From the NCBI GenBank assembly GCA_964023275.1, contig OZ029913.1, positions 49,851,976 through 49,915,975 on the forward strand: a stretch of DNA of 64,000 nucleotides, written 5' to 3'. The notes beneath the pieces are model-generated. The model had not been told where the DNA came from, did not search any database, and saw only the letters and a list, made by a program, of their open reading frames with translations. This document shows, in pieces, positions 6,829 to 63,000 of the stretch (position 1 is the stretch's first letter; each line of letters begins with the position of its first letter). The stretch is from Norana najaformis. Taxonomy: Eukaryota; Annelida; Clitellata; Crassiclitellata; Hormogastridae. The translations under genes and the position numbers were made by a program.

Positions 6829-6962
6829 GCAAATCAACTGATAACACTGGCCAACACATAATTTGTTGCCTCAAATGTTAGAACTGTTTCTGGGTATATT
6901 TGACCTGCTGATTCCAGAAAAGGCACCAGTTTTCTCCCAGCAGGTCTAGTTTTCGAGATATA
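6829..6962. repeat. Left inverted repeat of the element
   Basis: Imperfect reverse complement of 9343-9482. The best block is the shared ACACTGGCCAACA. Confidence 0.75.
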
Positions 6963-7160
6963 GAACATTATGCCATATACCAGTCTTTGCCTCTGCTCGC
7001 CCATAAAACATAAGGCTATAGCTATAATTATGTAGTGCTCAATTTATTATGTGATACACTAAATAAACATAATAATACAAATACTTAAAAGAAAATGGTA
7101 GCACCTGAAACTGTACTTATATGATACCAAACAGAACAAGTTTGTTATAAAAATTTCAAG

Positions 7161-8864
7161 TCATTCGACACCGAAGAAGCTCCTTTTGTACGATTTCCGA
7201 GTGTGGCATCTGCCGGAACAATCGCGCATAATATTCCAGCAATAGTCTGCCATCATGTGTGCATCCCGTCTTCCTTGATATCGATTTTCCATTGTTTTGA
7301 TGTCTTGGTGAAATCTTTCACCTTGCTCTTCGCTGAAGTCACCAAGATTCTCTGGAAAGCGATCTAAGTGACTGTGGAGATAATGGACTTTAATGTTCAT
7401 GTTGCAGCCAAGCTTGTTGAAATGAAGAAGCATATCCTCTACTAGTTGTGCATAATTGTCTGCCTTCTTGTTGCCAAGAAAATTTTTAGTTACAAGAACA
7501 AAGGAAGACCAGGCACAAGATTCGATTTCATTCACTGATGGTATGAAAAGTGGGTCATTCATAAGTTGCCTGATCTGTGGACCATCGAAGATTCCAGCCT
7601 TCAATTTTTCCATTGTAATTCCTGGTAACTTGTGTACTATGTATTCGAAGCATGAACCTTCTTTATTCAAAGCCCTGACAAATTGTTTCATCAGGCCTAG
7701 CTTTATATGTAGTGGTGGCAGTATGATCCTATCTCGTGCCACCAAAGATTCCTTGATTACATTTTGAGCTCCAACCACCATGTCTTTCCTCGAAGGCCAA
7801 TCTTTTCTTGTCCAATGTTCATGCTTGGCTCTACTGTCCCAAAGACACAAAAAGCAGGGATACTTTGTGTAGCCACTTTGTTGACCAAGGAGGAAATTTA
7901 CCATCTTCAAGTCTACACAAATTACCCATTGATGTTCTTTGTATTTTATCTTTTCCAGTACTAAAGAGATGGCATTGTACTCTTCTTTCATCCTGGTGGA
8001 GTGACCGATTGGAATAGAACCAAATTTGTTGCCGTTATTTAAAAGCACACATTTCAGACTACGTTTTGAACTGTCGATAAAAAGACGCCACTCATCTGGG
8101 CTGTAATCTGACAGACCAATTTTCTTCAATAAGTTGCTGATGTCATTACAGAATACTAGGTTGTTGTATTCGGTAAAGAATGGCAGCAAATCCTTTTCTC
8201 TGTTTCTATAAATTGTAATTTTCGTTCCAGGCTGAAGTGCATTCTTTTCCTTTAGTCTGGACGCAAGCAATTCAGAGGACTCTTTGGAAAGATTTAAGTC
8301 CCTGATCAGATCACTCAACTCTTTTTGGTCAAAACGTTCACTGTGTGAAGTTGATTGGAAATCACTGTCACTGCCCCCACTTTCTTCACTTTCGTCATCT
8401 TGTCCGATATTGGACATGCAAGTCTCATCGTCTGAGAGCTGAGGTAGTTCGCGAAAAGGTGGAACTGGTACAATATCCGAATGCGGAACAGGTCTCCTGA
8501 CTGAAGGTATATCAGGGTAAGACAACTTGTGACGATTATTTCGATTGATGCCTATGATATTAACCATACAAAAGTAACAGTCGTCGAAGTGGTTTATCTG
8601 TTCCCTCCAAACCATCGGTACACCAAATTTCAGGCAGCTTCTCTTTCCAATTGTCCAGTGGCGCAATTGTTCAATACAAGTTTTGCATACTGTATGAGGA
8701 GCCCATTGCTTATCTTGATCTCCAAGTTTGACACCAAAATAACCTACATATGCTCTTTTTATAAACTCAGAAATCGGTTTCCTGTTTGCTTTTAGTGTGT
8801 ATTCCCCACAAATGTAGCAGAGTATGTCTGGATGGTTAATGCAGCTCCGTCTGGAAGTAGCCAT
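7161..8864 (-). CDS. Intact 567-aa cysteine-rich protein, possible DDE transposase
   Basis: Single exon, no breaks, with its ATG at 8864. I recognise the family: near-identical uncharacterised proteins beginning MATSRRSCINHPD recur in several invertebrates, often in many copies. The N-terminus has a ZAD-like zinc pattern: C16-x2-C19, C60-x2-C63. An acidic, serine-rich linker lies near residues 145-175. The C-terminal half shows a strand-like FIDSSK (D264), then VICVDLKMV (D318), then PCFLCLWDSR, then FSEEQGERFHQD (E516 and neighbours). That order would fit an RNase H-like D-D-E core, which is my inference and not an established fact. The ORF is flanked by long inverted repeats, and base composition is like its surroundings. 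It could instead be a domesticated gene. Confidence 0.85.
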   Translation of the reverse strand: MATSRRSCINHPDILCYICGEYTLKANRKPISEFIKRAYVGYFGVKLGDQDKQWAPHTVCKTCIEQLRHWTIGKRSCLKFGVPMVWREQINHFDDCYFCMVNIIGINRNNRHKLSYPDIPSVRRPVPHSDIVPVPPFRELPQLSDDETCMSNIGQDDESEESGGSDSDFQSTSHSERFDQKELSDLIRDLNLSKESSELLASRLKEKNALQPGTKITIYRNREKDLLPFFTEYNNLVFCNDISNLLKKIGLSDYSPDEWRLFIDSSKRSLKCVLLNNGNKFGSIPIGHSTRMKEEYNAISLVLEKIKYKEHQWVICVDLKMVNFLLGQQSGYTKYPCFLCLWDSRAKHEHWTRKDWPSRKDMVVGAQNVIKESLVARDRIILPPLHIKLGLMKQFVRALNKEGSCFEYIVHKLPGITMEKLKAGIFDGPQIRQLMNDPLFIPSVNEIESCAWSSFVLVTKNFLGNKKADNYAQLVEDMLLHFNKLGCNMNIKVHYLHSHLDRFPENLGDFSEEQGERFHQDIKTMENRYQGRRDAHMMADYCWNIMRDCSGRCHTRKSYKRSFFGVE

Positions 8865-9342
8865 AACCTTAAGGATGTTCGCATCTGAGGAATTAAATGA
8901 CTAACCTAAAAAATAGTAAGAACATGTAGTTATTTAATGCTCACATTCACAGATTGTTCTTGCGACCAACTCTTAATATGCCCTAAGACGACTGCGGCTG
9001 CTCTAGCTTTCAGGAGGCGGTTTATATAGGCTATAAATGCTGACTTCAGCATAATCTATTTACATAGTTCGAAACCATGAAACGCTGTATAAGCACAAAT
9101 AAATTCTAAATGAGGCCATGAATTTAGTGCTGAGTAAGCTGTAGGCTACGGAATAGTTATTTTGTTGAATCAGCAATATCTCAGCACGCGGCAAGATATG
9201 CTGATTTTACATTATAAGGATGTAGGCATTATATGAATCAGCAAGAATTATAATTAGCCATAAATAAAGCTTATTATGACATTTTAGTTTTGCCAAAGAC
9301 ATCGTTTAAAGAGTGGACTGGGTTTTCTTTACAAAATCGACG

Positions 9343-9482
9343 ATATCTCAGAAACTAGACCCGATGCACTCAATCCAATGACATTTTCTGAATCAGCGCC
9401 CAAAATTACCCCAAGAACAGGTCTAAAACCGAAGGCAACAAGAAAAAAAAAATTTTCTGTTGGCCAGTGTAAGTTGACTGCA
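9343..9482. repeat. Right inverted repeat of the element
   Basis: Imperfect reverse complement of 6829-6962. A run of ten A inside it accounts for part of the length difference. Confidence 0.75.
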
Positions 9483-10841: not shown

Positions 10842-12068
10842 ATGACGAACAACGCAACCGTTGAGTTTGTCTTCCACGAGACGTCGTTGCTGCCGTTGCA
10901 CTTGATCGCCGAGTCCGCCATTAACGATTCCATGTGGCTTGAAGAGGCCCGAGGGTCGGAGGGACATAGTTCGCCTGGCGTGTCTCGAGCGGTCAGAGCC
11001 CAGTGGACAGGCGTCGTGCGGACCGTTATGTCTAGCTTCTACCTGGTCACTTTCGTCTTCGGACTGATCGGCAACTCGCTGACAATCTTCGTTATACTGG
11101 CCAACTTGAAGAAGCTGAAATCAGTAGCGATCTGCTTCATCCTAAACCTGGCTGTTGCCGACGACCTCTTCCTCGCCAGCCTCCCATTCATCGCCTACAA
11201 CACGCTGTCACAGAACTGGATCTTCGGCGATGTCATCTGTAAGTTCATGACGGCGTCACGCAGCATCAACAGCTACGTCAGCATCCTGACGATGGTCGTC
11301 ATGAGCATCGACCGCTACCTGGCGATCGTCCATCCGCTTCGGTCTATGCGCTTTCGGACACCGAAGAACGGCGCCATCGCCTGCCTTCAGCTCTGGATCG
11401 CCTGCATCGCCATCCTCACGCCCTACTGGCTCTACGCCAATGTCCGTCACTACGCTGCTCCTCCTTCGGTGTCGGTGAACCTGACGACGTCCAGATGTAT
11501 GATGAACTGGCCGACATTAGCTTATGAAACGGTCTGGGTCAACTTCGAAATTGTGTCTAGTTTTCTTTTGCCAATTCTGGTATTGGTGATGTGTTATACA
11601 AGACTTGTTCGCTCTTTGATGCTGAACCCGGTTCAACTTCAAGATCAGGCAAAAAAGCCGATAAGAAAGGTGACCGTTATGGTGTCCATAGTAACGACGA
11701 CTTTTGTCGTCTGCTGGGCTCCGTACCACTTTATCCTCTATAGAAACCACATGCAGAAAAAAACCTTGGCAACAAGAGCCGCCTCATCGATGCCAAGCGA
11801 AGCGGAAGTCTTCCGTCACGTGGTTTTCAATTCCGTTTCACAGGCTCTTATATTCGTCTCCAGTTGCTGCAACCCCTTCATCTACTGCATCAGCAGCAAG
11901 AACTTCAGTAAGTATGTACGCTATATACATTTTACTCGTTATCTGTATGGTATGTCATTGCGAAGGCCTACAGCTGGAGGTCGCCGGCGTATAACCACAA
12001 GTGTCATTTCTATGTCCTTTGCGCTTTTTCGCAGTGTTTGGTCGACTTCTTCCTTCATTCAGAGGTAG
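10842..12068 (+). CDS. Class A peptide GPCR, somatostatin/allatostatin-C/galanin-like
   Basis: The frame encodes a full seven-helix rhodopsin-type receptor at the plasma membrane. Landmarks are GN in helix 1 (N78), LAVAD in helix 2 (D107), C133 paired with C219, DRY at 157-159, W185 in helix 4, P244 in helix 5, CWAP at 291-294 and NPFIY at 344-348. The CMMNWP loop and the overall pattern fit the somatostatin/allatostatin-C/opioid/galanin branch, G-protein-coupled neuropeptide receptors; the ligand is not decidable here. An N-glycosylation site (NAT) lies near the N-terminus. The start ATG at 10842 is the first in frame. A strong splice donor follows residue 355 (see next entry), so residues after NPFIYCISSKNF are probably intron read-through and the true C-terminal tail lies in an unseen exon. 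Codons are more GC-rich than the flanks. Confidence 0.88.
   Translation: MTNNATVEFVFHETSLLPLHLIAESAINDSMWLEEARGSEGHSSPGVSRAVRAQWTGVVRTVMSSFYLVTFVFGLIGNSLTIFVILANLKKLKSVAICFILNLAVADDLFLASLPFIAYNTLSQNWIFGDVICKFMTASRSINSYVSILTMVVMSIDRYLAIVHPLRSMRFRTPKNGAIACLQLWIACIAILTPYWLYANVRHYAAPPSVSVNLTTSRCMMNWPTLAYETVWVNFEIVSSFLLPILVLVMCYTRLVRSLMLNPVQLQDQAKKPIRKVTVMVSIVTTTFVVCWAPYHFILYRNHMQKKTLATRAASSMPSEAEVFRHVVFNSVSQALIFVSSCCNPFIYCISSKNFSKYVRYIHFTRYLYGMSLRRPTAGGRRRITTSVISMSFALFRSVWSTSSFIQR
11906..11914 (+). other. Probable splice donor ending the GPCR exon
   Basis: TTCA|GTAAGTATG gives an exon end at 11907, phase 1, just after the helix 8 start. Beyond it the translation loses receptor character. No matching acceptor and tail exon could be named. 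Confidence 0.65.
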
Positions 12069-25753: not shown

Positions 25754-54692
<28,939 letters not shown>

Positions 54693-60000: not shown

Positions 60001-63000
60001 GGCCTCCCTGCTGTGTGATGCCCTTGCTCAGTATTATGACATTCATGGGACTGAAAGGCCCTGACAGGGTTGTGGCCTTCTTGTGTGAATAAGATTTGCT
60101 TTGTCACTAATTATTAGGCCTATAAAGTGGTAGTTATATAGAGGGCTATGCAAGAAGACTTGTACTAAGGGTTATGACATTGGATTATTTTTGCTTTCTA
60201 TGTTGTGGATGACTCTCTTTTCATCAAAGTTTCTGATTGTAGTATGCAGTTTTCTACAAACTTACTTACTTTATAGATGCCTTCATTTTCTAAATGCAGC
60301 TGTTGTTCATATTTGCTGTCAGCAGTGCCATTTTCTGTTTATTTGTCTTTAACTTCAGCTCGTTATACACTCAGCTAATTGGTGAAAGCAATCATGAAAA
60401 TTATGATGAATGGCGTGTGATGCTACTTAAGTCACAGATCATTCAGCTGGAAAGGCAGGTGAGGAACTTTGTCCATTAGGACGATTGGAAGTCTCTGCTC
60501 TTTGTTCTAGTGTTGAATTTTCTTCCTTAACAGTTGTCGAGGTAACAGATGATCGGATGTCTCAAAATACCATTTCTTCATGGTAATAAGTTGACGTAGA
60601 AGTTCTTTTACATTAACAAGTGATTGCATATACCTTTTGTTATATTTGGTTTTCAGATAAGAACATTTTGTGATTGGACACTTATTGCCCATTACACGTA
60701 CGTGTATGTATGTATGTATCCAGGTGCTTAATATGGTGCTTTTTAAATACTTCACTAAAGTGCTGCATTTGCTAACCAAGGTGGTGCTTAAATTAATTAG
60801 GGAAAAAAAGTTCATCTGTAAGCAAATAATGCTCAAATACTGGAAAAGTCACCAAATGGCGGCTCTTGCACACACATAAAACCAAGCCAACAGTCCCATC
60901 CAGAATTTACACTCGACATTACCTTCAGAGTTCATGGTCCACGTTGTGTTGAGGATTAAGAGTGACCACAGCCAGCATGTCTGACTGACACTCAGTCACA
61001 GGCTTCCTGGTCTGTGCAGGACAGGCATTCATCAGTAATTGTAATTGTAATTGTAATTAGAAATTTATATACCATCACTTCAAGAGAAACTAATTTTCTG
61101 AGTGCTATTATGCTTAGATCCTAAATGATGTTAAATGTTATTAAAAACAGAAAGTTTCACAGTTAGCAAGCAGTGTTCAGAAAATTAGGAGAGTCACCAG
61201 TGGTGAGCTCCCGCACACATGCAGAGTCCATCCAACATCCAGAGTTACTATCTGACACCATGTTAAGAATTCTTGGGGCATGTTGCATCAGGGATGATAA
61301 ACAATGCTAGTAGCAGGCCAGTTGGTCATAAAATCTCTCCATGATTGACAGTTGATACCACTCCAAGGATTTGCTTCACCAGAGCCAAGATTTCCTGGTT
61401 GCAGATGGTACGTGTAAGTCTTGGGCTTGATACAGTCCAAACACCGAATCACCGCCCTCTGTTATGGATGGACTGATTCAAAATGGTGGTCAGGCCTTGA
61501 TGTCCAAACACAATCCAAAAGTCGCAAAAAACAAGCATTAACTTTTAAATGCGCACTCGGGCATAGCAGAAGTCCATCCATAATATCCATCAATGTATTG
61601 ATGTTGAATTGAGGCTTTTGTAAGCAAACAGAGTATCTCAGTCATTTTCTCCCAAGCTGATGGTCACTGATGGTATCTGATCTTTGAACTTGAGAAACAT
61701 TGAGGGATGACCGACATTCATGTGTACCATGACATTGGGAAGATCTGAGACTGTGGTGGATATAGGAGGGCTACTGAGAATGCCTTCAGTGTTCCATTAG
61801 TTTAATTGACCATGCAAAAATGCAAATCAGCTGGATTGACATGCAATTAGTCTGTTGGAGGGTAGACTAATTATAAAAGGCATAGCACAGAATGGAATAC
61901 AGGGACGTGGGAGAGGAATAAGACAAGCAGGCTGTCGCTGGCAGAAGAGCTCAAGTTGACCAGCAAGCTGAGTTGAGGCCTGCATTTGATTGTCATTGTG
62001 AGGCTGGATGGCCATCAGTGGGGGGTCAGCAGTAACATGGGCTGTATAAGGAGGTGAGAGGTATCTGAGGGGTTCTAGGACAATAACCCCTGGACAATTA
62101 CCCCCCGGACAATTACCCCCGGACAATTACCCCCCATGCAAATAACCCCCCCGGACAATTACCCCCCCGGACAATTACCCCCCTATACAGTAAAGAGTAG
62201 ACATGAAAGATTTACCATACATCAAAAACTAATTATTAGACAATTATTAGACAACTGGGCACAGTGTAGAGATGAAAGAATTACCAAACATCAAAAACTA
62301 AATATTGGACAATTATTAGACAATTGGGCCCAGACTAGACATGAAAGAATTACCACACATCAAAAACTAATTATTAGACATCAGACAGTTGGGCCCAGAC
62401 TAGACTCTTTCATGTTGTGTGGTAATTCTTTCATGTCTAGTCTGGGCCCAATTGTCTGATAATTGTCTAATAATTAGTTTTTGATGTATGGTAAGTCTTT
62501 CATGTCTACTCTTTACTGTATAGGGGGGTAATTGTCCGGGGGGTAATTGTCCGGGGGGTTATTTGCATGGGGGGTAATTGTCCGGGGGTAATTGTCCAGG
62601 GGGTTATTGTCCTGTTACCATCTGAGGGCCTTGTCTTCTGGTGGGGCTTCTTGTTCTGGCTTCTTTGATGGGTGCTGGTGAGAAAGCTTGTTGGGGCTGG
62701 ACAATCGTTGCCACCAGAGAGATGCGAGCAGGGACTCAGCCGAGCAGCAAATAAGGGTGAGGAAGTCAGTAACATGGACTATATAAGGAGGTGAAATATA
62801 TTGCTTGGAGTCTTGAGGGAAAAGGGGTCAGTATCAGGTGAAAGATTTATCCATTTTGTTCTGATTGGAGGACAGTCTCAGAGTTTCATTTGAGTGGCAA
62901 GGGACCCATTGGTTTCATTCAGTCAGCGGCCTCTTTATCTCTGAATAAGGTGTGCTTTGGAATTCTAAGTGGTCAGCCTTAAACCAGTCATAGCTGCAGG

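What the first reader, a model, noticed from the sequence alone, without database searches (positions are those of the whole stretch)
6829..9482. Intact 567-aa ZAD-like/possible DDE protein inside long inverted repeats: a likely undescribed transposon type
Seen: an unbroken single-exon ORF flanked by ~135-bp imperfect inverted repeats sharing six ordered blocks. Known: proteins of this family recur as uncharacterised multi-copy genes in invertebrates. Inferred: the gene is the transposase of the unit, with an N-terminal ZAD-like zinc domain (C16, C19, C60, C63) and D264, D318 and E516 as candidate catalytic residues in an RNase H-like fold. A ZAD fused to a DDE core would be unusual.
Basis: partly seen in the sequence, partly recalled or inferred. 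Interest (0 to 1): 0.8.

Follow-up and report, generated by a model that had tools for sequence, protein, structure and literature searches.

The report
Chapaev3-type DNA transposon, recently very active
The gene is the transposase of a cut-and-paste DNA transposon that fits a known animal kind (Chapaev3, a relative of the RAG1 antibody-gene recombinase) and has spread recently and widely in this genome, so it is a fine example of a known kind and not a new one.

The parts
6845..9469 (.). whole transposon, 2,625 bp, 5'-CACTGGCCAACA...TGTTGGCCAGTG-3'
   Evidence: CACTGG/CCAGTG ends in 40 of 40 copies; lengths 2624-2626 in the 40
6842..6844 (.). left target site duplication TAA
9470..9472 (.). 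right target site duplication TAA
6845..6983 (+). left long imperfect terminal inverted repeat (inner limit approximate)
9331..9469 (-). right long imperfect terminal inverted repeat (inner limit approximate)
7161..8864 (-). single-exon transposase ORF, 567 aa
   Evidence: 35 of 40 copies keep a 567-aa ORF
8568..8843 (-). N-terminal zinc domain, residues 8-99 (C8, C16, C19, C60, C63, H92, C96, C99), read as the Chapa domain
   Evidence: these eight residues are the same in every relative piece that covers them (6 to 9 pieces each); weak zf-AD and RAG1_imp_bd matches
7281..8090 (-). catalytic region, residues 259-528: RNase H-like core with C(2)C...LH...H(4)H insert; D264 (8073-8075), D318 (7911-7913), E516 (7317-7319)
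   Evidence: model m28cbb289f1a9; fold matches; residue conservation

Best explanation
A complete, probably autonomous Chapaev3-type (CMC clade) cut-and-paste DNA transposon that multiplied very recently in this animal genome. Inferred mechanism: the 567-aa transposase binds the long subterminal inverted repeats through its N-terminal zinc domain and the helical region before the core; pairs the two ends; [quoted passage not shown] and inserts with a 3-bp stagger, preferably at A-TWA-T, leaving a 3-bp duplication. Shown here: anatomy, duplication, copy number, youth of the sampled copies, intact frame, motifs, best fold match to Transib/RAG1. Inferred: zinc and DNA binding, cleavage chemistry, present activity.
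Against: No Chapaev3 protein was at hand, so there is no alignment or tree with Merrow, Garfield or Conan. No Pfam family reaches its cut-off, and DUF1280 (linked to Chapaev in PMC3985635, passages only) is not among the matches. PMC4079192 reports TWA in all and A/T 'always'; here 26 of 32 TWA and 26 of 32 with both A and T. 8 of 40 copies lack a clean 3-bp duplication. In broken relatives C340 is lost in 2 of 8 pieces, H499 in 2 of 10, H494 in 1 of 10, D264 in 1 of 9. Conservation does not separate E516 from E513. Confidence of the model is moderate, low at the N-terminus and around 331-348. The 40 copies are the best matches to the window, so intactness and youth are biased upwards; the query flanks also bias that set toward TAA (23 TAA against 3 TTA, but 34 against 36 in the listing).
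Confidence: 0.9

Rival explanations
1. It is an animal EnSpm/CACTA element (same CMC clade) and not Chapaev3.
For: 3-bp duplication and CAC...GTG ends fit EnSpm too, and EnSpm, Mirage, Chapaev and Transib share C(2)C and H(3-4)H (PMC12730594, passages).
Against: No match to Transposase_21, the Pfam family that PMC3985635 (passages) groups with CACTA transposases, at E <= 10 in 25 protein pieces; TWA preferred between A and T, the 567-aa single-exon protein and the N-terminal zinc domain fit Chapaev3.
Confidence: 0.06
2. An undescribed transposon superfamily with a ZAD fused to a DDE core.
For: No Pfam family reaches its cut-off and no NCBIfam family matches; weak zf-AD match.
Against: The published marks of Chapaev3 that could be tested are met, two of them as strong tendencies; the fold goes to Transib/RAG1; a complex zinc domain is already reported for Chapaev3.
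Confidence: 0.03
3. PIF/Harbinger element, which also duplicates TWA (recalled).
For: Mostly TWA 3-bp duplication.
Against: CAC/GTG ends; RAG1/Transib is the top fold; no Harbinger-type family among the Pfam matches.
Confidence: 0.01

Closest known systems
Chapaev3 DNA transposons (e.g. Garfield_BM of silkworm, 2,289 bp, 556 aa; Merrow; Conan), CMC clade
   Same: CAC...GTG ends, TWA duplication between A and T as the main pattern, C(2)C-LH-H(4)H motifs, size of element and protein, single-exon gene as in most Chapaev3, N-terminal zinc domain
   Different: Sequence relation to the named families not measured; TWA and A/T setting not absolute here; Garfield and Merrow have two exons, this has one
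Transib transposase and RAG1 recombinase
   Same: Best fold matches over residues ~176-562; DDE plus zinc insert with C(2)C and H(4)H; D-to-C spacing of 19 equals RAG1
   Different: Identity 8-13% in the listed rows; 3-bp and not 5-bp duplication (5 bp for Transib/RAG recalled); D264-D318 spacing 54 against 108 in RAG1; no second long ORF in the element, so no RAG2-like partner
zf-AD (ZAD) zinc domain
   Same: CxxC...CxxC over residues 16-70, sub-threshold match
   Different: Eight conserved C/H residues, not the four of a ZAD (recalled); below the curated cut-off in every piece where it was listed

Membership tests
Chapaev3 (CMC clade) | 3-bp TWA target duplication | tested here: met
   32 of 40 copies with identical 3-mers, 26 of the 32 TAA/TTA, control 0.434; unfilled sites. 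Predominant, not absolute
Chapaev3 (CMC clade) | insertion between A (5') and T (3'), 'always' in PMC4079192 | tested here: inconclusive
   28 of 32 A, 29 of 32 T, both in 26 of 32: a strong bias, not always
Chapaev3 (CMC clade) | 5'-CAC...GTG-3' termini | tested here: met
   40 of 40 copies
Chapaev3 (CMC clade) | C(2)C, LH and H(4)H motifs between second D and E | tested here: met
   C337/C340, L385-H386, H494/H499 in the window protein. In relative pieces: C337 8 of 8, C340 6 of 8, L385 7 of 8, H386 8 of 8, H494 9 of 10, H499 8 of 10
Chapaev3 (CMC clade) | DDE triad in an RNase H-like, RAG1/Transib-type core | tested here: met
   D264 in 8 of 9, D318 in 8 of 8, E516 in 9 of 9 relative pieces. 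Distances between the three residues in the model were not measured
Chapaev3 (CMC clade) | N-terminal Chapa zinc domain | tested here: inconclusive
   eight C/H residues conserved; one relative matches RAG1_imp_bd at E 0.0044, 17.1 of 23.3 bits needed, 1 of 25 members; no Chapa model at hand
Chapaev3 (CMC clade) | groups with Chapaev3 transposases in a tree | not testable with these tools
   no Chapaev3 protein sequence was found to compare with; a text search for six peptides of this family listed one paper, on West Nile virus, with one of them (listing only)
Chapaev as modelled by Pfam DUF1280 (PF06918) | match to DUF1280 | tested here: not met
   not among matches at E <= 10 for 25 pieces
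EnSpm/CACTA | Transposase_21 (PF02992) domain | tested here: not met
   not among matches at E <= 10 for 25 pieces
EnSpm/CACTA | 3-bp duplication and CAC...GTG ends | tested here: met
Transib | 5-bp target duplication (recalled) | tested here: not met
   3 bp in 32 of 40; a single copy (L030) shows 5 bp
zf-AD (ZAD) | score above Pfam gathering cut-off (28 bits) | tested here: not met
   17.6 bits whole protein, 19.1 bits N-terminal 188 aa

The most novel reading that the evidence does not exclude
The arthropod-type ZAD domain and the N-terminal Chapa/RAG1 zinc domain share an ancestor, so that ZAD zinc-finger transcription factors took that domain from Chapaev3-like transposases; and this family, still mobile, is a compact RAG1-like transposase that works without a RAG2 partner.
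Probability: 0.12. Interest if true: 0.65.

Novelty: new member of a known kind. Interest (0 to 1): 0.33.

Why it matters
It corrects a claim of a new superfamily. It also shows that a Chapaev3-type family has more than a thousand places in one animal genome, with the sampled copies nearly identical and mostly intact, and gives structural-model support that such transposases have the zinc-pinned DDE core of Transib and RAG1. A young single-exon family would be a practical subject for biochemistry of the Chapaev branch; none of the 9 titles listed (listing only) is about that, which is no proof of absence.

Tried and rejected
Single-sequence AlphaFold run: pLDDT 34, discarded. Relatives in viral and prokaryote collections: none found; three pattern hits in viral contigs gave no protein match better than E 0.22. 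Viral structure library: no hit at E <= 0.001. Sequence search of the PDB with the protein, A1, the N-terminus and A2: nothing at E below 1.4. Pfam scan of A1 also lists Myb_DNA-binding in 4 of 25 members (best E 0.0039); I did not follow which, and do not use it. Orientation bias of the duplication (23 TAA against 3 TTA) looked interesting but is absent from the listing that did not use flanks as query (34 against 36), so it is most likely a choice artefact. A1, used for the model, held 24 of the 32 stop-free relative pieces; residues were therefore recounted on all 32 (A3), which added exceptions at H494 and H499. dN/dS of about 0.77 from 25 silent and 73 changing variants among 35 intact frames is not used as an argument, because intact frames were selected. 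The other families of this genome were not taken to their ends; self-comparison showed no clear long inverted repeats around the ORFs of L048-L051.

Full report
What is there. The ORF 7161-8864 (minus, 567 aa) is unbroken. The outer inverted repeats are at 6844-6867 and 9447-9470 in the raw search. Comparison of 40 copies sets the ends at CACTGGCCAACA...TGTTGGCCAGTG, window 6845-9469, 2,625 bp, with TAA on both sides; lengths of the 40 copies are 2624-2626.

Copies. The 40 copies are the 40 scored of 1,288 candidates of the DNA search, so they are a favourable sample. 32 of 40 have the same 3-mer on both sides; mismatched left-right pairs of the same sites, in element orientation, agree in 677 of 1,560 cases, binomial P 2.5e-6. 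Six of the 32 have unusual 3-mers that still agree on both sides. The other 8 have a 4- or 5-bp duplication (L047, L030) or no clean one. Of the 85 left ends among the 100 places listed by an end-pattern search (1,347 places in all, reversed control 0), 36 bear TTA and 34 TAA (that pattern demanded T at the first base). Joined flanks of copy L034 find 40 scored places: two are its own flanks, and 37 of the other 38 run across the junction without the element; in the one place there read by base (L066) one 3-bp slot stands where the filled site has two. A weaker case of the same is in L051.

Number and age. A 27-base piece of the core occurs at 1,504 places with at most one mismatch, reversed control 0. 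A protein search scored 77 places of 6,373 candidates, each 98-100% identical over at least 566 of 567 residues, 76 of them without a stop. The 39 fetched copies differ pairwise by 0.40% on average, at most 0.65%, and on average by 5.5 substitutions from their majority. 35 of 40 (window included) keep a 567-aa frame. This is a recent burst; how far the other places share this youth was not measured. No mutation rate is known for the unnamed host, so no date is given.

Protein. No Pfam family reaches its cut-off and no NCBIfam family matches. Searching the genome with a variant of a conserved peptide found 404 further places, and a second pattern 19, some of which are variants of the window's own family (L060, 97%). 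32 stop-free pieces of 12 relatives (L048-L059) were cut out; they are 30-73% identical to the window protein (A3). In those that cover the position, C8 (6), C16 (7), C19 (7), C60 (9), C63 (9), H92 (8), C96 (8), C99 (8), D318 (8), C337 (8), H386 (8), E513 (9) and E516 (9) never change; D264 is kept in 8 of 9, C340 in 6 of 8, L385 in 7 of 8, H494 in 9 of 10 and H499 in 8 of 10, the exceptions lying in broken copies; C77 is kept in 0 of 8; H497 (7 of 10) and E512 (6 of 9) vary. That leaves H494/H499 as H(4)H and E513 or E516 as the acid; E516 lies 17 residues after H499, E513 14, against 20 for RAG1 H942-E962, which favours E516.

What it is. PMC4079192 (passages; section 14) gives for Chapaev: 3- to 4-bp duplications and 5'-CAC/GTG-3' ends; for Chapaev3: TWA duplications set between A and T; C(2)C, LH and H(4)H motifs in Garfield; a 556-aa transposase in Garfield_BM; a single exon in most other Chapaev3. 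These fit here, TWA and the A/T setting as strong tendencies and not without exception. PMC4411706 (passages; section 6) reports a complex N-terminal zinc finger, the Chapa domain, shared by Chapaev, Chapaev3 and the RAG1 N-terminus. The eight conserved C/H residues at 8-99 fit that; one relative (L056) matches Pfam's RAG1_imp_bd at E 0.0044, below cut-off, and zf-AD matches at E 0.0015 to 0.014 in the window protein, L053 and L057, also below cut-off, and not in L049-L052. With 25 pieces scanned such values are suggestive, not proof. PMC12730594 (passages) puts EnSpm, Mirage, Chapaev, Transib and RAG1 together by C(2)C and H(3-4)H; PMC3985635 (passages) links DUF1280 to Chapaev, and that family does not match here.

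How it most likely works. Cut-and-paste transposition by a RAG1/Transib-like DDE transposase acting on long subterminal repeats, with 3-bp staggered joining preferably at A-TWA-T. Anatomy, duplication and fold match are shown; cleavage chemistry, zinc binding, DNA binding and present mobility are inferred.

Verdict. New member of a known kind, with unusual youth and intactness as the chief point of interest.

Noticed in passing
window 10842-12068 (+): 408-aa single-exon ORF with hydrophobic stretches and DRYLAIVHP and NPFIYC motifs: by eye a class A (peptide-type) G protein-coupled receptor, about 1.4 kb from the transposon.
   Followed up: no
window 40821-42358: 32 copies of a 48-bp unit at 99% match; open on the minus strand as 16-residue repeats [16 protein letters not shown]. 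Young satellite, frame probably incidental.
   Followed up: no
window 62078-62183 and 62523-62612: Two minisatellite arrays with units GGACAATTACCCCCC and GGGGGGTAATTGTCC, reverse complements of each other, on either side of a 69-bp tandem repeat at 62194-62380; unexplained inverted arrangement.
   Followed up: no
genome G000, loci L048-L059: Further Chapaev3-like families in the same genome (404 places for one peptide variant); the copies fetched are broken, 30-73% identical in pieces to the window protein.
   Followed up: partly
genome G000 C11:25338357-25343192 (L060): Three places with a motif variant of the window family about 2.4 kb apart on one strand: perhaps a tandem or nested group; the one read is 97% identical in protein and broken.
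   Followed up: no
L034 flanks; 38 other places in G000: The element sits in a repeat of about 200 bp that is spread through the genome at 72-86% identity; interspersed repeat of unknown kind.
   Followed up: partly
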